Assembly (NCBI GenBank): GCA_020846295.1
Contig: JADLEF010000319.1
Location: 1 to 64,000, forward strand
Source of the DNA: Acidimicrobiales bacterium
GTDB taxonomy: Bacteria; Actinomycetota; Acidimicrobiia; Acidimicrobiales; CAIXPF01
Length of the DNA stretch: 64,000 nt
Reading direction: 5' to 3'
Shown here piece after piece: positions 4,703 to 39,058 of the stretch. A program made the position numbers and the translations under genes. Numbering within the stretch: position 1 is the stretch's first letter; the number at the start of each line of letters is the position of its first letter. Under the pieces are notes generated by a model that did not search any database, was not told the DNA's origin, and saw nothing but the letters and a program-made list of their open reading frames with translations.

Positions 4703-5200
4703 TCACAGCAGCTCCTTGAAGTAGTCGAACGGTTCCAGGCAGTCCTCGCAGCGGTACAGCGCCTTGCAGGCAGTGGAACCGAACTCGCTGATGGGCCGGG
4801 TGCGCCGCGACGAGCACCGGGGACAGGCGATCCGGGTGCGCACCGTCACGGGGGCGGCGATGCCGTAGTCGGTGAGCTTGCGCCGGCCCTCCTCGCTCAT
4901 CCAGTCGGTCGTCCACGCCGGCGACAGCACGGTGCGGACCTCGCCGACCGACCCGGTGCCGGACAGGGCGTCCTCGACCCGGTCGGCGATGTACTGCATG
5001 GCCGGGCATCCCGAGTAGGTGGGCGTGATGGTGACCACGATGCGGCCGTCGACCCGATCGACCGAGCGCAGCACGCCGAGGTCCTCGATGGTCAGCACCG
5101 GCACCTCGGGGTCGGTGACGGCGGCGACCGCGGCCCACACCGCGGCCAGCTCCGGATCGCGCGCCGCGGGCACCGACCTGCCCATGACCACCCCGCTCAC
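4703..5200 (-). CDS. paaD: Phenylacetyl-CoA epoxidase assembly factor PaaD
   Basis: DPEVPVLTIEDLGVLR, TPTYSGCPAMQ, C-terminal CPRCxSxxT...CKALYRCEDCLEPFDYFK; GTG start overlapping paaC stop (GTGA). Confidence 0.93.
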   Translation of the reverse strand: MSGVVMGRSVPAARDPELAAVWAAVAAVTDPEVPVLTIEDLGVLRSVDRVDGRIVVTITPTYSGCPAMQYIADRVEDALSGTGSVGEVRTVLSPAWTTDWMSEEGRRKLTDYGIAAPVTVRTRIACPRCSSRRTRPISEFGSTACKALYRCEDCLEPFDYFKELL

Positions 5201-5961
5201 CACTGGGCCCCGATGTGGGCCCGGTACAGCGACTGCATCTCGGGCAGGATGTGGCCCAGCAGCTCGGTGTGGTTGCCGACGCGGCCACCGAGGCGCTGGT
5301 AGGGGTCGGCGGGCAGGGCGAGGGTGGCCTCGGCCAGCACCGCCTGCACCGTCGCATCGAACCGGGTGCGCAACGGCGCCACGTCGGCGGCGATGCCGGC
5401 CAGCGCGTCCTCCACGTCGTCGGCGGCGAACAGGTCGGCGCTGTAGCGCCACAGGGCGTCGATGCCGGCCTGCATGCGTCGGTGGCTCTCCTCGGTCCCG
5501 TCACCGAGGCGCACCACCCACTGGGTGCTGTAGCGCAGGTGGTAGCGGGCCTCCTTGGCCGCCTTGTCGGCGATGGCGGCGAGCTGCGCGTCGCCGCTGG
5601 CGACGAGGGCCTCGTAGAGCGGCACCTGGTAGGCGTCGAGCAGGAACTGCCGGGCGATGGTCTGGCCGAAGTCGCCGTTGGGTTGTTCGACGAGCACCGC
5701 GTTCAGGAACTGTCGCTCATCGCGCAGCATGGCCAGCGCGTCCTCGTCGCGTCCCGCCCCCTCGACCTCGGCGGCGTAGGCGAGCAGGTTGCGGGCCTGG
5801 CCGAGGTGGTCGAGGCAGAGGTTGGCGACGGCGATGTCCTCCTCGAGCTCGGGCATCCAGCTGACCAGCGCGCCGAGCTGCTGGGCGTGGACCAGGTTGT
5901 CGTCGGCGAGCCGCAACAGGTAAGAGAACAGCGGGTTGGCGGCGAACGGGTTGGCGTTCAC
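5197..5961 (-). CDS. paaC: Phenylacetyl-CoA epoxidase structural subunit PaaC
   Basis: LADDNLVHAQQLGALVSWMPELEEDIAVANLCLDHLGQAR. Confidence 0.93.
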   Translation of the reverse strand: MNANPFAANPLFSYLLRLADDNLVHAQQLGALVSWMPELEEDIAVANLCLDHLGQARNLLAYAAEVEGAGRDEDALAMLRDERQFLNAVLVEQPNGDFGQTIARQFLLDAYQVPLYEALVASGDAQLAAIADKAAKEARYHLRYSTQWVVRLGDGTEESHRRMQAGIDALWRYSADLFAADDVEDALAGIAADVAPLRTRFDATVQAVLAEATLALPADPYQRLGGRVGNHTELLGHILPEMQSLYRAHIGAQW

Positions 5962-6290
5962 ATGTGCCCCACTTCTTCGGGGATCTCGTAGAAGGTCGGG
6001 TGGCGGTAGGGCTTGTCGTCGTCGAACCAGTCACCCTTGGCGTCGGGGTCCGAGGCGCGGATGGCGCTGGAGGGCACCACCCAGATCGACACGCCCTCGT
6101 TGCGCCGGGTGTACACGTCCCGAGCGGATTGGATGGCGGTCTCGGCGTCGGGGGCGTGCACGCTGCCGGCGTGCACGTGGGTGAGGCCGCGATCGGCCCG
6201 CACGAACACCTCCCACAGCGGGTACCCGGTGCGGCGGCCCCCCAGCTCGGGGTCCACCTCGCCCGCCATGCGGGGCACGTCGTAGCTCAT
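5958..6290 (-). CDS. paaB: Phenylacetyl-CoA epoxidase subunit PaaB
   Basis: [52 protein letters not shown]. Confidence 0.93.
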
Positions 6291-7282
6291 GACAGCTCCT
6301 TGTTCGCTGCGTTGACGGTGTTCGCTGCGTTGACGGTGTTCGCGGTGGGCTCTGCGGCGGCGCTGCGCTTGGCGGCGTGGGCGAGGGCGGCCTCGCGCAC
6401 CCAGGCGCCGTCCTCCCAGGCCTTGACCTTGTGGGCGATACGGTCGCGGTTGCACGGCCCGTTGCCCTTGACCACCTCCCAGAAGTCCTCCCAGTCGATG
6501 TCGCCGAAGTCGTAGTGACCGCGCTCCTCGTTCCACGCCAGCTCCGGATCGGGGATCTCCAGGCCGAGGAACTGGGCCTGCGGCACCGTCATGTCCACGA
6601 ACCGCTGGCGCAGCTGATCGTTGGTCTCCACCTTGATGCCCCAGCGCATGGACTGCTCGGTGTGGGGCGACTGGTCGTCGGGCGGGCCGAACATGGCCAG
6701 CGACGGCCACCACCACCGGTCGAGCGCGTCCTGGGCCATGTCCTTCTGGGCCTCGGTGCCGCGGGCCAGGGTGAGCATGATCTCGTAGCCCTGCCGCTGG
6801 TGGAAGGACTCCTCCTTGCAGATGCGGATCATGGCCCGGGCGTAGGGCCCGTAGGAGGTGCGGGTGAGCGCCACCTGGTTGGTGATGGCGGCGCCGTCCA
6901 CCAGCCAGCCGATGGCGCCCATGTCCGCCCACGACAGGGTGGGGTAGTTGAAGATCGACGAGTACTTCTGGCGACCGTTGTGCAGCAGCTCGTTCAGCTC
7001 GTCGCGGGCCACGCCGAGGGTCTCGCACGCCGAGTACAGGTAGAGCCCGTGGCCCGCCTCGTCCTGGACCTTGGCCACCAGGATCGCCTTGCGGCGCAGG
7101 CTCGGGGCCCGGGTGATCCAGTTGCCCTCGGGCTGCTGGCCGATCACCTCGGAGTGGGCGTGCTGGGCGATCTGGCGGATCATCGTCCGCCGGTACTCCT
7201 CGGGCATCCAGTCCCGCGGTTCGATCTTCTGCTTGGCGGCGATCAGCGTGTCGAACGCCTCCTGCCCCGTGGTGACGGTCAT
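6287..7282 (-). CDS. paaA: Phenylacetyl-CoA epoxidase catalytic subunit PaaA
   Basis: 331 aa, [61 protein letters not shown]; first gene of paaABCDE order. Confidence 0.95.
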
Positions 7283-31105: not shown

Positions 31106-33478
31106 CTACTCGAGGACCTCGGCGACGGCGAGCTCCGCGATGCGCTCACCGTCGTAGCCGAGGATCGTCTCGAGCACCTCGTAGGTGTGCTGGCCGTAGG
31201 TCGGCCCTGCCCAGCGGTACTCCCCCGGCGTGCGCGACAACCGCTGCGGCGGCGTGTCGACCACCGAGCGGCGGACGTAGGGGTGGTCGACCCAGCAGAA
31301 GTGGCCACGATGGCCGAGCTGCGCGTCGGCGAGGAGCTCGCCCGAGTTCTGCACCTCGTGGGCGGGCACCCCCTGGGCCTGCAGCCGGTACATGAGGCCG
31401 GTGGCGTCCTGGCGGGCGGTCCACGCCGAGATGACCGCATCGAGCTCGTCGCGACGAGACACCCGGTCCGCCGCGCCCAACCCGGCGAGGTCCTCGCGGC
31501 GCATCTCGGTGGCCAGACGGCGCCACTGCTCATCGGTCTCGCACACGATGGCGATCCAGCCGCCCCCGTCCCCCGTGCCGGCCCTGGCGTCGAGGCCGGG
31601 GTACACGGCGTGGGGCACCACCCCCGGTTCGTCGTTGCCTCGACGGGTGGCCGCCTCGCCGCCGCGCTGGACATCCACCAGCGCCGGGGTGAGCAGGTGC
31701 GTGGCCGCCTCCATCTGCGAGAAGTCGAGGTACTGGCCCTCGCCGGTGCGCCTGCGATGATCGAGCGCGCCGAGCAGCGCGCACATGGTGAACCGGGGCG
31801 AGGTGTAGTCGGTGTAGGCCATGTACGGCCCGGCCGGGGAGCGGTCGGGCCAGCCGGTCACATCGAAGAAGCCCGCCACCGACGCAGCCAGGTTGCCGAA
31901 CCCGGCGAAGTTCCGCAACGGCCCCCGCTGACCCATCACACAGCTCGACAGCATGATCAGGCCCGGGTTCACCGCCGACAGCTCCTCCCAGCCGAGACCC
32001 CAATCGGCCATGGTGCCCGGGGTGAAGGACTCCACCGCGACGTCGGCCCAGCGGGCCAGGTCCATCACGACAGAACGGGCCTCCGGCTTGGACAGGGTGA
32101 GCGCGAGGCCGAGCTTGCCCGCGTTGGCCAGCTGCCAGGTGAGCGCGTTCTCCACCTCGACGATGTCGTCGCGGTGGCCGAGCGCGATGCGGGTCAGGTC
32201 GGGCCGCAGCGAGGACTCGACCCGCACCACCGTGGCACCCCAGTAGGCGAGCAGCCGGGTGGCCAGCGGGGCGGCGGCGACCCAGGAGAGATCGAGCACC
32301 TTGAGCCCGGCGAGCGGCCCGCCCTCCGATTCAATACCGATCGGTATGGCAGCGCCCGACGAGCGGGACACAGCGCCCGCCAGCGCGGCGCGCACCGCCG
32401 TCGCGTCCGCTCGCGGCCGGGCCGGGGCTCCGCCCAACCGGCGCAGCGGCGTGCGGGAGGCGGCCACGAACGGCCCGGGGTAGCGGATCCCGTCCACCTC
32501 GTCCCAGCTGTCGCGGGCGGCGAGCTGCGGGCTGGCCAGCACGTCGGCCATCGTCGAGACCGGGGCGATCAGCAGCTTGCGCTCCAGCGCGCCGGCCAGC
32601 AGCTCGTTCTTGGTCCTCGTCGCGGTGAACGCGCTGATGCAGTCGAGCACCCGCACCAGCTCGCTCATCGGTTCCTCGCCGCTCATCAGCTGCCCACCGA
32701 ACGCGACCCAGTCCTTGGCCAGGGTGGCATCGTCGCAGTGGCCGCACTCGTGCACCCACTCCATGAGGCGCCGTTGGAACGGTCCGATCATCGCCCCGAA
32801 GGACACCGAGATGGCGACGTAACCGTCCCGCGCCGGATACACCCAACGCAGGTGGGTGCCCTCGATGCGCACGCCGCCGGATTCGCGGTGCGAGGGGACG
32901 AGGCCGACCGCAGCGTGCAGGCCGGCGGGCAGCGAGGGGAGCGTCACCGACTGCTGGGCGGAGACGTCGACGTGCTGACCGAGCCCGCTGCGGGCGCGCT
33001 CGTGCAACGCGACCAGCGCGCCGACGGCGAGGTCGCTGCCGGCATGGGCCCACGCCTGTCCCACGCTGGTGCGCACCGGAGGCCGGTCGGCGTCCCCGGT
33101 GACCGCCATCTGCCCGCTGGCCGCCATCAGCGTCAGGTCGGTGGCGAGCCAGGCCGCCTTGGGGCCGCTGGGCCCGTACGGGGTCAGCGTTGCGGTCACG
33201 AGCGCGGGGTCGGCGGCGCGCCAGGCGGCGGTGTCCACCTCCGGCCGGTCTCCGGTGTCGAGCACGACGTCGGCCCACGTCACCAACTCCTCGACGGTGG
33301 CGTCGACGCCGACCACGACCGATCGCTTCCCGCGGTTGTACGCATCGAAGGTGCTGTCGCGCCGCCAGCCCCCGGCCGGTTCGGCGAGGACGACGTCCGC
33401 ACCGAGTTGCGCCAGCAGCAAGCCGGCCAACCAGCCCCGATGGTCGGTCAGATCCAGCACGCGATACGCGTCGAGCAC
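31106..33478 (-). CDS. Tandem-domain CaiB/BaiF (family III) CoA-transferase, 790 aa
   Basis: Two CaiB-like N-terminal motifs: RVLDLTDHRGWLAGLLLAQLGADVVLAEP and KVLDLSWVAAAPLATRLLAYWGATVVRVES; GTG start. Confidence 0.88.
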   Translation of the reverse strand: MLDAYRVLDLTDHRGWLAGLLLAQLGADVVLAEPAGGWRRDSTFDAYNRGKRSVVVGVDATVEELVTWADVVLDTGDRPEVDTAAWRAADPALVTATLTPYGPSGPKAAWLATDLTLMAASGQMAVTGDADRPPVRTSVGQAWAHAGSDLAVGALVALHERARSGLGQHVDVSAQQSVTLPSLPAGLHAAVGLVPSHRESGGVRIEGTHLRWVYPARDGYVAISVSFGAMIGPFQRRLMEWVHECGHCDDATLAKDWVAFGGQLMSGEEPMSELVRVLDCISAFTATRTKNELLAGALERKLLIAPVSTMADVLASPQLAARDSWDEVDGIRYPGPFVAASRTPLRRLGGAPARPRADATAVRAALAGAVSRSSGAAIPIGIESEGGPLAGLKVLDLSWVAAAPLATRLLAYWGATVVRVESSLRPDLTRIALGHRDDIVEVENALTWQLANAGKLGLALTLSKPEARSVVMDLARWADVAVESFTPGTMADWGLGWEELSAVNPGLIMLSSCVMGQRGPLRNFAGFGNLAASVAGFFDVTGWPDRSPAGPYMAYTDYTSPRFTMCALLGALDHRRRTGEGQYLDFSQMEAATHLLTPALVDVQRGGEAATRRGNDEPGVVPHAVYPGLDARAGTGDGGGWIAIVCETDEQWRRLATEMRREDLAGLGAADRVSRRDELDAVISAWTARQDATGLMYRLQAQGVPAHEVQNSGELLADAQLGHRGHFCWVDHPYVRRSVVDTPPQRLSRTPGEYRWAGPTYGQHTYEVLETILGYDGERIAELAVAEVLE

Positions 33479-33618: not shown

Positions 33619-34341
33619 ATGGGCGACAGCACGACGCCGGGCGGCGGCCGCGTCGGGCAGGACGCGGTGCACCGGGTCATCCGGGCCTCCGCCACCCACC
33701 CCGATGGCTGGGAGCAGGCCACCGCCGCCGCGGTGGCCGACCTGGCCGGCACGATCGCAGATCTGCGGCTGGCCATGGTGGTCGACCGCCGCGTCGCCAT
33801 CGGCCCGGACGGTACCCTGCAGTATGGCGTGACGCTGTCGCTGGCCTACCGGGTGGACCGCCGACGGGCGGCGCCCGGGGGCGGCGTGACCACCGTGCGG
33901 CGGGTGCTGCTGCTGGCCAACCGCACGGCGGGCGGCGCCGAGTTGATGACCGAGGTGCGCCGCCGCACCGCCGGCGGCCCGTGCGAGTTCCACGTGCTGG
34001 TGCCGGTGCTGGTGCCCGTCGTCGGCACCGCGGCTGCGTGGGGGGAACCGGGCGCTGGCGACGAGACCGATGCGATGTTCGCCTGGGCCGCCGCCGAGGA
34101 GCGACTGGCGTTGCAGCTCGCCCTGCTGCGGGAGGCCGGCGTGCCGGCGACCGGGGAGCTGCGCCCGTCCGATCCGCTCAAGGCGACCCTCGAGGTGCTG
34201 GGCCGGGCCAGCTTCGACGAGATCATCGTGTCGACCCTGCCCGCTGCGCTGTCGCGCTGGCTGCGGCTGGACCTGCCCAGCCGCCTGGCCCGCCAGATCG
34301 ATCTGCCCATCGTGCACATCGAGCAGGCCGCCGCGAGCTGA
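33619..34341 (+). CDS. Dodecin-like N-terminal domain fused to USP-like alpha/beta domain
   Basis: N-term VHRVIRASATHPDGWEQATAAAVADLAGTIADLRLAMVVDRRVAIGPDGTLQYGVTLSLAYRV matches dodecin pattern; C-term VLLLANRT...DPLKATLEVLGRASFDEIIVSTLPAALSRWLRLDLPSRLARQIDLPIVHIE. Confidence 0.75.
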   Translation: MGDSTTPGGGRVGQDAVHRVIRASATHPDGWEQATAAAVADLAGTIADLRLAMVVDRRVAIGPDGTLQYGVTLSLAYRVDRRRAAPGGGVTTVRRVLLLANRTAGGAELMTEVRRRTAGGPCEFHVLVPVLVPVVGTAAAWGEPGAGDETDAMFAWAAAEERLALQLALLREAGVPATGELRPSDPLKATLEVLGRASFDEIIVSTLPAALSRWLRLDLPSRLARQIDLPIVHIEQAAAS

Positions 34342-34366: not shown

Positions 34367-35449
34367 TCAGCCGGTCAGCGCGCTCCCGGACTCCCACGGC
34401 GCGAGCTGACCGGCGTACACCGACGGACCCCTGCGGAAGTGCGACGCCTCCTCGAGGGTCTCCACGAAGGGCATGTCGATCGGGTAGAGCGCTTCGCCGC
34501 GCGGCCGCGGCCCGGCCTTGGACACGTGCCCGTACAACGGGTGACCGACGATCTCCTCCGCGACCCACGCCGCCTCGATCAGCTTGCCGAGGTCGTAGCC
34601 GGTCTCGATGCCGAGCTCGTGGCACAGGTCGACGAAGTCCTCCGTCGGCACGTGCCCGGCCGAACGGCCGTTGCCGCAGTACGGGCAGCCACCCATCCCG
34701 CCGATCGAGGTGTCGAACTCGGTCACCCCCAGCCGCAGCGCCTCGTAGTAGCTGGCGATGGTGGCGCCGCGGGAGTTGTGCAGGTGCAGGTGGAACGTGG
34801 TGATCTCCGGCCAGCGTTCGCGCACGGCCTCGATCGTCTCGCTCACCGTATGGGGCAGGTTCCAGCCCATGGCGTCGGAGAAGGAGATCTTGGCCACCTC
34901 GAAGCCGGCGGCGTGCCACGTGTCGACCATCAGCCCGATCATGTCGAGGCGTCGGGCCCGGGGGAACGGGCCCTCGACGGTCGAGCCGACCGGGCTGCCG
35001 AGGGTGACCGACCCGTGCTCGGCGCCGGCGCGGCGCGCCGCGGCGATCACCCCGTCCATGGCCTCGATCTGCTGGGCCTGGGTGCGGTTGTAGTTGCGGC
35101 GGGCGAAGGAGTCGCAGCTCTCGACGTGCGTGCTGAAGCGGCGGGTGCGCACGTCGATCTTGGGATAGAACCGATCGGCCCGCTCGAAGCCCTTCTGGTT
35201 GAAGATCGCCGCCGTGTAGCGCACGCCCGGCTTGGGCACGAAGCGCTCGCACAGCTCCTCGATGTTCGCCATCGACGGCGTCCACTTCGGGTGGGCGAAC
35301 GAACCGACCGAGATGACCTTGGCACCGGTGTCGCCGAGCGCGTCGAGCAGGCGCAGCTTGTCGTCCACGCTGATGTCGGGGCTCTCGATCTGCAGCCCCT
35401 CGCGCATGGTGTCATCGGTGATGGTGACCCGCTGCGGGATCATGCTCAT
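34367..35449 (-). CDS. HMG-CoA lyase / pyruvate carboxyltransferase-like protein
   Basis: RVTITDDTMREGLQIESPDISVDDKLRLLDALGDTGAKVISVGSFAHPKW; GGMGGCPYCGNGRSAGHVPTEDFVDLCHELG. Confidence 0.85.
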   Translation of the reverse strand: MSMIPQRVTITDDTMREGLQIESPDISVDDKLRLLDALGDTGAKVISVGSFAHPKWTPSMANIEELCERFVPKPGVRYTAAIFNQKGFERADRFYPKIDVRTRRFSTHVESCDSFARRNYNRTQAQQIEAMDGVIAAARRAGAEHGSVTLGSPVGSTVEGPFPRARRLDMIGLMVDTWHAAGFEVAKISFSDAMGWNLPHTVSETIEAVRERWPEITTFHLHLHNSRGATIASYYEALRLGVTEFDTSIGGMGGCPYCGNGRSAGHVPTEDFVDLCHELGIETGYDLGKLIEAAWVAEEIVGHPLYGHVSKAGPRPRGEALYPIDMPFVETLEEASHFRRGPSVYAGQLAPWESGSALTG

Positions 35450-35504
35450 GTCGCTCCCCCTGGCATCCGGCCCGGACCGGGCCGAGCCTAGCGGTGCGCC
35501 GCGC

Positions 35505-36263
35505 TCACGTTCCGGCCGACAGGTACTGGTCCTCGATCTCATCGATGCGGGTCGCCATCTCGGCAGCGGTGCCGCTCAGCTCGATCCGGCCGCGACGCAT
35601 CACGTAGACCCGGTCGGCGTAGCGCAGCGCCTTGCGCACGTGCTGCTCGACGAGGAGCACCGCCGTGCCCTGCTCGTCCGCGGCGGCACGGACCGCTTCC
35701 AACAACCGCTGCACGATCAGCGGGGCGAGCCCCATGGACAGCTCGTCGGCCAGCAGCAGTCGGGGCCGGCGGGCGAGCGCCCGGGCGAGGGTGAGCATCT
35801 GCTGTTCGCCGCCGGAGAGCAGCCCGCCTCGGACATCGAGGCGGCGCTCGAGCTCGGGGAACAGCGCCAGCGCGTCCTGCACCCGCACCCCGCCGACGCG
35901 GAGGTTGTCCCGGGTGCTCAGCCCCATGAACACCGACTTCTCCTCCGTGACGAAGGTGAGCCCGTTGCGGGCTCGGCGGTGCAGCGGCGTCCGCGTCGGC
36001 GCGCCGTCGAGCTCGACGTGGCCGGCCAGCGGCGGCAGTTCGCCGGCCAGCGCCAGCAGCGTCGTCGTCTTGCCTGCGCCGTTCGGTCCGAGCAGGGTCA
36101 CCACCTCGCCGGGGTGCACCTCGATCTCGACGTCGTGCACGACGGGCTGGGCGCCGTACCCCGCGGCTAGGCCCACGGTACGCACCGCAGGCACGCCCGT
36201 CGCCATCCTGGGCGGTACGGCGCCGTCGCGCACGTCGATCGTGGTCCCGTTGGCATCGTTCAC
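35505..36263 (-). CDS. livF: Branched-chain amino acid-type ABC transporter ATPase (LivF-like)
   Basis: LLGPNGAGKTTTLLALAG, LSGGEQQMLTLARALARRPRLLLADELSMGLAP. Confidence 0.92.
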   Translation of the reverse strand: MNDANGTTIDVRDGAVPPRMATGVPAVRTVGLAAGYGAQPVVHDVEIEVHPGEVVTLLGPNGAGKTTTLLALAGELPPLAGHVELDGAPTRTPLHRRARNGLTFVTEEKSVFMGLSTRDNLRVGGVRVQDALALFPELERRLDVRGGLLSGGEQQMLTLARALARRPRLLLADELSMGLAPLIVQRLLEAVRAAADEQGTAVLLVEQHVRKALRYADRVYVMRRGRIELSGTAAEMATRIDEIEDQYLSAGT

Positions 36264-39001
36264 GAGGTCACCGCCGCGGTGTCGGTCTCATCGGAGTGCT
36301 GGATCTGCTCGTCGCTCTGGCCGAGGTAGGCGGCGACGACCGCCGGATCGTTGCGGACCTGCTCGGGGGTGCCCTCGGCGATCCGGCGGCCGAAGTCGAG
36401 CACCACGATCCGGTCGCACACGCTCATCACGAAGTTCATGTCGTGCTCGACCAGCAGCACGGCGATGCCCCAGTCGTCGGCGAGGCGCCGCACCAGGTGG
36501 GCCAGCTCGGCCGTCTCCACGTCGCCCAGACCGGCCGCCGGTTCGTCGAGCAGCAGCACGCTCGGCTGGGCGGCCACCGCGCGGGCGATGGCCAGCAGCC
36601 GCCGCTGCCCGTAGGGCAGGTCCTGCACGTGACGCAGCAGATCGTCCTCCAGACGGAACTCCCTGATGGCGGCCACCACCGTCGGCGGCAGCGGCGGGGT
36701 CCGGGGGTGGACCAGGTCGGTGAGGTAGGACAGGCGGTCTCGCGGGTCCGACGCGGCGCGCAGGTTGTCCAGCACGGTGGCGTCCTCGAACAGCTCGAGG
36801 GACTGGAACGAGCGGGAGATGCCGGCTCGGGCCCGTTTGGGCACCGACCACGCCGACACGTCGGTTCCGTCCAGCACGACCGAGCCGGCCGCCCGGGTGA
36901 AGCCGGTGACCGCGTCGATCACCGAGGTCTTGCCCGCCCCGTTGGGCCCGATGAGCCCCACGACTCGACCCGGCTCGACCACGAAGTCCACCTCGTCGAC
37001 CGCGGTCACCCCGCCGTAGCGCACGGTGAGGCCGTCGACCCGGAGCACCTGCGGCCGTACCCGGTCCCGGGCCCGGCCCTCCTCCTCGGGCGGCAGCTCG
37101 ACCCGTTCGACGGGCCGCTCCCGACGCAGCCCGGGCAACCGGCCCCGCAGCTTCCCGGTGACGAAGGCGACCTGGTTGATCGACTCACGGGCGATGCAGT
37201 CCTGGTTCTGCAGCACCAGCAGCACCACGAAGGCACCGCCGATGAGCTGCAGGTAGCGCGTCACGCTGGAGAAGATGACGTTGGACAGCTGCGCCCCGAG
37301 CGAACCGGGCGCCAGGGTGGAGCCGAAGATCGGCCCGAACAGGAACCCGATGCCGCCGATGAAGGACCACGCCACGGTGAGGATCGACGTGAAGTTGGTG
37401 AACTCGTTGCCGTAGATGATCACGTCCTTGCGGAAGGCGAGCAGGATCCCGCCCAGGGCGGCGATCCCGGCCGACACGGCGAAGGCGTACACCTTGGCGC
37501 CGGGCACGCTGATGCCGAGGGCGGCGGCGGCCCGCTCGTTGGTGCGCACCGCCAGCAGACGCCGACCGGATCGCCCGCGACGCATGCTGGCCACCATCAG
37601 CGCCACCACCGTGAAGCACACCATGGACACGATGGCGTAGCGGCCGGGATAGGTGATGGCGTTGAAGTCCCACCCGAACAGCGAGGGCTTGCCCACCTTG
37701 GTCCCGGCGAACCCGCCGACGAAGTCACCGTTCTGGAAGATCATCAGCTCGATGCCGGTGCCCAGACCGAGCGTCACGATGGCGAGGTTGATGCCCCGGG
37801 CGCGCACCGCGGGCAGGGCGAACAGCGCACCGAGCGGGACGGTGGCCACCACCCCGGCGATCATGGCGGGCAGGAACGGCCAGCCACCGGCGTCCACCAG
37901 TCGGCCGGCGACGAGCGCACCGAAGCCGGCCAGGGCGAACTGCGCCAACGACAGCTGCCCGGCGTACCCGGTGATGACCACCACCGACAGCAGGACCAGC
38001 CCCATGGCGAAGGTGGTGATGAACGCATCCTGCCAACGCAGCGGCACGAGCAGGATCACCACCGCGGTGGCGACCAGCCCGACGGCGAGGGCCTTGGCGT
38101 TCACCCGACCGCTGCCCACCGCGGGCAGGCGTTGCAGGAAGAAGTCGCGCAGCGGCAGGGCCTGGCCCCGCGCCACCATCCACACCACGATCACGACGAA
38201 CGGCAACGACGCCGGGACGCCGGGCGTGTTCACGAATCGGACCAGCTCGGTCTGCAGGATGCCGAGGGCCACGCCGGCGGCGAAGGCGATCGGAAAGGAC
38301 CGGAAGCCCGCCACCAGCGCGGCGGCCATGGCGGCGAGCACCAGGTTGGTCATCGTCGCCACCTGCAGCTGCACGATCGGCGCGATGAGGATGGCCGCCA
38401 TACCGGCCAGCGCGGAGCCCAGCGCCCAGTTGAGGGTGGCGATCCGATCCGGGGACAGCCCGACGCTCGAAGCCGCCCGCTGGTTCTCCGCCACCGCCGT
38501 GGTGGCGAGGCCGAAGCGGGTGTAGCGGTACAACGCCCACAACAGGGCGCTCACCGCCGCGGCGATGCCGACCAGGATGAATCGGTCGATGGAGATCGTC
38601 AGCCCGAAGGGGTGCACCAGCGTTCGGGGCAGCTCGGAGCTCACCGCGGTGACCCGAGCGCCGTAGCGCAGCACCGCGGCGGACTGCAGCACGATCAGGA
38701 TGCCCAACGTCGCCACGATGCGGGCGAGCGGCGAGGCCCGGCGCAGCTGTCGCATCACCAGCAGATGCGACAGCGCGCCGATGGCCGCGCAGGCCAGCAG
38801 GCCGATGATCCAGGCCAGCCACCAGGGCTGCTCCTGTTTCACCTTGACCTCCCAGTGGATGTACGCCCCCACCATGCCGATGGCACCGTGGGCGAAGCTG
38901 AGCACGCCCGACCCCCGGTAGATCACCATCAGGCCCTGCGAGGCGAGCGAATAGAGCGCGCCCAGCCCGAGGCCCAACAACGCGAACCGAAGTACTTCCA
39001 T
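36260..39001 (-). CDS. LivH-LivM-LivG triple fusion (permease-permease-ATPase)
   Basis: N-term LivH-like (GLGLGALYSLASQGLMVIYRGSGVLSFAHGAIGMVGAY), middle LivM-like (GYAGQLSLAQFALAGFGAL), C-term LivG-like (GLIGPNGAGKTSVIDAVTGF, PYGQRRLLAIARAVAAQPSVLLLDEPAAGL); ATGA overlap with livF. Confidence 0.93.
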   Translation of the reverse strand: MEVLRFALLGLGLGALYSLASQGLMVIYRGSGVLSFAHGAIGMVGAYIHWEVKVKQEQPWWLAWIIGLLACAAIGALSHLLVMRQLRRASPLARIVATLGILIVLQSAAVLRYGARVTAVSSELPRTLVHPFGLTISIDRFILVGIAAAVSALLWALYRYTRFGLATTAVAENQRAASSVGLSPDRIATLNWALGSALAGMAAILIAPIVQLQVATMTNLVLAAMAAALVAGFRSFPIAFAAGVALGILQTELVRFVNTPGVPASLPFVVIVVWMVARGQALPLRDFFLQRLPAVGSGRVNAKALAVGLVATAVVILLVPLRWQDAFITTFAMGLVLLSVVVITGYAGQLSLAQFALAGFGALVAGRLVDAGGWPFLPAMIAGVVATVPLGALFALPAVRARGINLAIVTLGLGTGIELMIFQNGDFVGGFAGTKVGKPSLFGWDFNAITYPGRYAIVSMVCFTVVALMVASMRRGRSGRRLLAVRTNERAAAALGISVPGAKVYAFAVSAGIAALGGILLAFRKDVIIYGNEFTNFTSILTVAWSFIGGIGFLFGPIFGSTLAPGSLGAQLSNVIFSSVTRYLQLIGGAFVVLLVLQNQDCIARESINQVAFVTGKLRGRLPGLRRERPVERVELPPEEEGRARDRVRPQVLRVDGLTVRYGGVTAVDEVDFVVEPGRVVGLIGPNGAGKTSVIDAVTGFTRAAGSVVLDGTDVSAWSVPKRARAGISRSFQSLELFEDATVLDNLRAASDPRDRLSYLTDLVHPRTPPLPPTVVAAIREFRLEDDLLRHVQDLPYGQRRLLAIARAVAAQPSVLLLDEPAAGLGDVETAELAHLVRRLADDWGIAVLLVEHDMNFVMSVCDRIVVLDFGRRIAEGTPEQVRNDPAVVAAYLGQSDEQIQHSDETDTAAVTS

Positions 39002-39058
39002 ACCGAGCGTTCCTCCCAACGATCCTTCAGCGTTGCGACGTGTCCCGAGCGTCGTGCG

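What the first reader, a model, noticed from the sequence alone, without database searches (positions are those of the whole stretch)
33619..34341. Dodecin-USP-like fusion protein
Residues about 15-80 match the dodecin pattern (VhRVI..S.tSPdgWEqA...AV..a..Ti.DLR.A.VV...V...G....Y.VtlsLaYrV). The remainder is an alpha/beta domain ending VLGRASFDEIIVSTLPAALSRWLRLDLPSRLARQIDLPIVHIE, like actinobacterial USP-type proteins. Dodecins are usually stand-alone about 70-aa flavin/CoA-binding dodecamers; a covalent stress-domain fusion would tie flavin storage to nucleotide/stress sensing and alter assembly.
Basis: partly seen in the sequence, partly recalled or inferred. Interest (0 to 1): 0.66.

Follow-up and report, generated by a model that had tools for sequence, protein, structure and literature searches.

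The report
Dodecin fused to stress-protein-like domain
The gene makes a protein in which a dodecin, normally a tiny stand-alone cage-forming protein, is joined to a domain shaped like universal stress proteins; this joining recurs in one class of actinobacteria, nearly always beside a separate dodecin gene, and it has lost the residues needed to store flavin or to bind ATP in the usual way.

Summary
Window 33619-34341 (+) encodes a 240-aa protein: residues 17-80 are a dodecin (Pfam PF07311, above cut-off; nearest solved relative M. tuberculosis SecE2/Rv0379, 3onr), and residues 94-236 are a USP-fold domain (nearest 2iel, TT0030). A 19-sequence AlphaFold model (pLDDT 83) agrees. It is not a one-off. 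I found 33 such N-terminal fusions in Acidimicrobiia (3 in this genome), and their dodecin domains form one clade.

New result: 32 of the 33 have a separate SecE2-type dodecin gene immediately beside them (tandem, often overlapping, or divergent). The partners also form one clade, so an old duplicate-and-fuse pair has been kept together. The window copy is the only one without a partner, and it alone has lost the D58/R70 pair invariant in the partner-linked fusions compared.

The flavin-stacking Trp (L51 here) and Gln (G70 here) are absent, and the USP ATP motif is absent in 27 of 27 fusions tested. Best reading: a dodecin cage, probably mixed with the partner, displaying modified USP domains on its outside. 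Assembly and ligand are inferred. No description of this architecture was found in the papers I could search.

The parts
33619..34341 (+). Dodecin - USP-like fusion gene, 240 aa, ATG start, single gene (no dodecin partner in the window)
33619..33666 (+). Variable, predicted disordered N-terminal tail (residues 1-16)
   Evidence: pLDDT below 50 for residues 1-14; not conserved
33667..33858 (+). SecE2-type dodecin domain (residues 17-80); Trp position = L51, Gln position = G70, R58 where the partner-linked fusions have Asp
33856..33900 (+). Junction with invariant DRxR (D80, R81, R83) leading into the first strand of the second domain
   Evidence: alignment; DRxR in 27 of 27 fusions
33898..34326 (+). 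USP-fold (2iel-like) domain (residues 94-236) without the canonical ATP motif
31106..33478 (-). Divergent neighbour: two-domain family III CoA-transferase; not a conserved neighbour of the fusion
34367..35542 (-). Convergent neighbour: HMGL-like (HMG-CoA lyase family) protein

Best explanation
The gene encodes a naturally decorated dodecin. The N-terminal SecE2-type dodecin domain builds the dodecin cage, and the C-terminal USP-like domain sits on its outer surface, joined by a short, conserved DRxR junction. In most relatives the cage is probably a mixture of the fused subunit and the small partner dodecin made from the adjacent gene; the window copy is a diverged paralogue that has lost its own partner. 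The cage acts as a scaffold or avidity platform for the USP-like domains, which bind a ligand other than ATP in the canonical manner, and it is not a flavin store. Shown: the architecture, its recurrence, the adjacent partner, the clade-forming history of each half of the pair, and the missing flavin and ATP motifs. Inferred: assembly into a cage, mixing with the partner, outward display, and ligand binding by the second domain.
For: Both domains by profile, sequence and fold. Fusions: 26 loci, nearly all labelled Acidimicrobiia, in the genome collection, 3 in this genome, 4 more from whole-genome search. A dodecin gene is adjacent to 32 of 33: of the 26, 15 are tandem (mostly within 12 bp or overlapping) and 11 divergent; in C132 the two genes share GTGA. 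By contrast 0 of 57 loci with a stand-alone C-domain had a dodecin nearby, flanks mostly 1.5 kb. Fused dodecins form one clade (29 rows, support 99/88) and partners another (26 rows, 96/84). Trp and Gln lost; ATP motif 0 of 27. Conserved C-domain residues T103, P129, E180, S212, R213, D218-P220, R222 and R225 lie mostly at strand ends of the model, where USPs bind nucleotides. Dodecin termini are on the outside of the cage and engineered fusions up to four times its size still form dodecamers (PMC7414021).
Against: No oligomer model could be made. The window copy has no partner and has R58/G70 in place of the invariant D58/R70, so its dodecin half may assemble differently or be decaying. The excess co-variation of fused and partner dodecins (Spearman 0.72 against 0.37-0.39 for the other comparisons) fades to 0.32 when two clades are removed, so it does not show contact. 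Engineered dodecin fusions do not all fold (PMC7414021).
Confidence: 0.5

Rival explanations
1. Flavin (or CoA) store coupled to a nucleotide or stress sensor.
For: It is a dodecin by Pfam. Arginines aligned with R45 and R65 of T. thermophilus dodecin are present in the window copy (R58, R78). The window neighbours are CoA enzymes.
Against: Flavin Trp absent in 30 of 30 fused and 24 of 24 distinct partner dodecin sequences; Gln replaced in all. ATP motif absent. CoA-enzyme neighbours are not conserved: the CoA-transferases of two loci are only 29% identical. R58 is unique to the window; 17 of 17 others have Asp.
Confidence: 0.1
2. Fusion and partner form separate homomeric cages, and the pair is kept only for co-regulation or is a duplicated storage protein.
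For: Each forms its own clade. Canonical dodecins are homododecamers. The window copy exists without a partner.
Against: 32 of 33 linkage with frequent stop-start overlap and conservation of the pair through two orientation types favour a stoichiometric relation.
Confidence: 0.25
3. The fused dodecin is not a cage former any more but only a dimer- or trimer-forming module, or a decoy subunit that caps or limits the partner cage; the window copy is a decaying paralogue.
For: Fused dodecins vary more than partners (mean identity 0.50 against 0.71). The window branch is long (1.32) and has lost D58 and R70.
Against: Core positions W31, A34 and A52 are invariant and the domain is still modelled as a full dodecin fold.
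Confidence: 0.15

Closest known systems
SecE2 / Rv0379, 'calcium dodecin' of M. tuberculosis (PDB 3onr)
   Same: Best sequence and fold match for residues 16-79; shares the SWEQA-type helix start and the absence of the flavin Trp.
   Different: Stand-alone 72-residue chain; no second domain. The window copy has R58/G70 where SecE2 has Asp/Arg.
Flavin-binding dodecins (H. salinarum 1mog, T. thermophilus TTHA1431 2cz8, M. tuberculosis Rv1498A 3oqt)
   Same: Same fold and Pfam family.
   Different: They have the flavin-stacking Trp and a Gln; both are absent here. The same genome also has a true Trp-bearing dodecin (L001).
TT0030 of T. thermophilus (PDB 2iel), uncharacterised USP-fold protein
   Same: 31% identity and best fold match of the C-terminal domain; shares the STLP..LSRWLRLD stretch.
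   Different: Stand-alone; no dodecin. Relatives are common as single-domain genes in the phylum.
Universal stress proteins (UspA family, e.g. 4wny, 3tnj, 1wjg)
   Same: Same overall fold.
   Different: No Pfam Usp hit and no G-2x-G-9x-G(S/T) ATP motif.
Engineered dodecin fusions (mtDod carrier constructs, PMC7414021)
   Same: Cargo attached to a dodecin terminus and displayed on the dodecamer surface.
   Different: Man-made; here evolution made a comparable construct, with a separate undecorated dodecin beside it in nearly all relatives.

Membership tests
Dodecin (PF07311) | Full-length profile match above Pfam's cut-off | tested here: met
   29.6 bits against 22.5, profile 1-64 of 64
Dodecin (PF07311) | Dodecin fold (helix wrapped by three-stranded antiparallel sheet) | tested here: met
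   E17-27 H31-43 E49-61 E67-79; TM-score to dodecins 0.78-0.92 on the target length
Dodecin (PF07311) | Dodecameric cage | not testable with these tools
   only a single-chain model was available
Flavin-binding dodecin | Flavin-stacking Trp (W38 in TTHA1431) | tested here: not met
   L51 in the window; 0 of 30 fused dodecins have Trp
Flavin-binding dodecin | Flavin-contacting Gln (Q57 in TTHA1431) | tested here: not met
   G70 in the window; Arg in 29 of 30
SecE2-type dodecin | Groups with SecE2 apart from Trp-bearing dodecins | tested here: met
   tree of 82 domains; few columns, so deep order is weak
SecE2-type dodecin | Calcium binding | not tested
   the structure paper is not held
Universal stress protein (UspA) | USP (HUP-type) fold | tested here: met
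   Foldseek to 2iel, 4wny, 2gm3, 1wjg, E below 1e-3
Universal stress protein (UspA) | Pfam Usp profile match | tested here: not met
   no family at E up to 10 for the C-terminal half
Universal stress protein, ATP-binding class | G-2x-G-9x-G(S/T) motif | tested here: not met
   0 of 27 fusions

The most novel reading that the evidence does not exclude
Fusion and partner form a two-component mixed dodecin cage in which a sub-set of subunits carries USP-like sensor domains outward: a cage-displayed signalling or capture particle specific to Acidimicrobiia, with a ligand that is neither flavin nor ATP.
Probability: 0.35. Interest if true: 0.65.

Novelty: new variant of a known kind. Interest (0 to 1): 0.5.

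Why it matters
Dodecins are known as tiny self-standing cages that store flavin. A natural fusion to a USP-like domain, kept for a long time together with a second, unfused dodecin gene, suggests that dodecin cages are also used as display scaffolds. The pair gives a simple test system (two small genes) for mixed cages and for what SecE2-type dodecins, which lack the flavin residues, are for.

Tried and rejected
Link to CoA metabolism through neighbours: rejected, since the CoA-transferases beside two fusion loci are only about 29% identical and other loci have unrelated neighbours (epimerase, TetR, SpoU methylase, luciferase-like enzyme, amine oxidase). Co-evolution as proof of contact: the high correlation is carried by a few clades. 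dN/dS of the window gene against its nearest paralogue (dS 0.62, dN 0.42): too diverged and GC-biased to use. Plasmid origin: no match. Fusion in Solirubrobacteraceae (L120/G101): only the C-domain is there; the apparent match to the dodecin half has no dodecin by profile.

Full report
1. Observation. The ORF at 33619-34341 (+) is real and intact: 240 aa, ATG, a purine-rich GGGGGAG just upstream. Residues 17-80 match Pfam dodecin over the full profile and above its cut-off. The best solved relative is SecE2/Rv0379 of M. tuberculosis (3onr, E 8e-7), and residues 95-238 match TT0030 of T. thermophilus (2iel, E 2e-9). With a profile of ten fusions the same two are on top (3onr 2e-20, 2iel 1e-15).

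2. Fold. AlphaFold2 on 19 fusion sequences gives mean pLDDT 83 and pTM 0.68; both domains are confident, while residues 1-14 and 137-145 are not. Foldseek returns 2iel, 3onr, other dodecins and several universal stress proteins (4wny, 2gm3, 1wjg, 3tnj, 3hgm). The finding's refutation clauses (no dodecin hit, or a single USP domain) are therefore not met.

3. Recurrence. The same genome holds two more full-length fusions, on contigs C132 (55%) and C277 (45%), and one typical Trp-bearing dodecin (L001). A sample of the order gave a dozen or so further genomes. A scan of 84,980 species genomes gave 26 fusion loci, all MAGs labelled Acidimicrobiia (or a group within it) or with broader actinobacterial names; that scan uses two peptide patterns and can miss members. 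The window's own genome is placed in the same family as the MAG behind L088 (Acidimicrobiia bacterium Dino_bin48; the contig length of G401:C95 and L088 agree). A phylum-wide sample of 397 genomes showed the C-domain widely, and complete fusions only in the window's own genome. One genome (G411, L081) has the reverse order, C-domain then dodecin, in a single ORF; its dodecin is placed apart from the fused clade, so it looks like a separate fusion.

4. The partner. Of 33 distinct N-terminal fusion loci (26 from the scan, 3 own, 4 more from whole genomes), 32 have a second, unfused dodecin gene directly adjacent. In the scan set 15 are tandem, mostly with gaps of -8 to +12 bp, and 11 are divergent. 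In C132 the stop of the partner and the start of the fusion share GTGA. The only fusion without a partner is the window's: no unfused dodecin lies anywhere in the 64 kb. As a contrast, none of 57 loci with a stand-alone C-domain had a dodecin in the flank held. In a tree of 82 dodecin domains the N-terminally fused ones form one clade (29 rows, 99/88) and the partners another (26 rows, 96/84). The simplest reading is one duplication, fusion of one copy, and long joint inheritance. The tree rests on 63 columns, so its deep order is uncertain. Many of the 33 are near-copies: 17 partner-linked pairs remain when C-domains over 90% identical are merged (four loci not included).

5. Residues. Alignment to TTHA1431 places its W38, R45, Q57 and R65 at window L51, R58, G70 and R78. 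No fused dodecin has the Trp (0 of 30) and the Gln is Arg in 29 of 30. Among 17 non-redundant partner-linked fusions D58 and R70 are invariant; the model's hairpin (strands 49-61 and 67-79) puts these two positions opposite each other, and the window copy has R58 and G70. So the single partnerless copy is also the one that has lost this pair. That is one case and may be coincidence. In the C-domain the USP ATP motif is absent in 27 of 27, yet residues mostly at the strand ends are invariant (T103, P129, E180, S212, R213, D218, L219, P220, R222, R225), which suggests that a binding site is still there. The DRxR junction is invariant in 27 of 27.

6. Mechanism. Dodecin termini point outward and engineered fusions still form dodecamers (PMC7414021), so an outward display of the second domain is the natural expectation. 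Conserved, often overlapping pairing suggests that fused and plain subunits are made together and mix. The correlation of distances between fused and partner dodecins (0.72) is higher than with the C-domain (0.37-0.39), but falls to 0.56 and then 0.32 as clades are removed, so it is only a hint. The ligand of the second domain is unknown; ATP by the classical motif and flavin in the dodecin pocket are unlikely.

7. Known or new. Each domain is known. The architecture and the fixed gene pair were not found in the papers I could search, which exclude most subscription journals; automatic domain databases may list the architecture. I file it as a new variant of a known kind.

Noticed in passing
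window 36260-39019 (-): One 919-aa ORF reads as two branched-chain amino-acid permease domains followed by an ATPase domain (LivH-LivM-LivG-like in one chain), next to a separate LivF-like ATPase at 35505-36263. Judged by eye from the translation.
   Followed up: no
window 31106-33478 (-): A 790-aa protein with two family III CoA-transferase domains in one chain; a distant two-domain relative (29%) lies next to the partner dodecin in L101 and L104.
   Followed up: partly
L081 (G411:C43) about 1924-2670: Reverse-order fusion: USP-like domain followed by a dodecin in one 258-aa ORF, the only dodecin found in that genome.
   Followed up: partly
L047 (G000:C132) 5012-6887: Partner dodecin, fusion and a GNAT plus CBS-domain protein lie in a tight same-strand run, with a TetR-like gene upstream on the other strand.
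   Followed up: partly
phylum-wide: The 2iel-like USP-fold domain of the window protein matches no Pfam family, although it is common in Actinomycetota and in some loci appears twice within one open frame.
   Followed up: no
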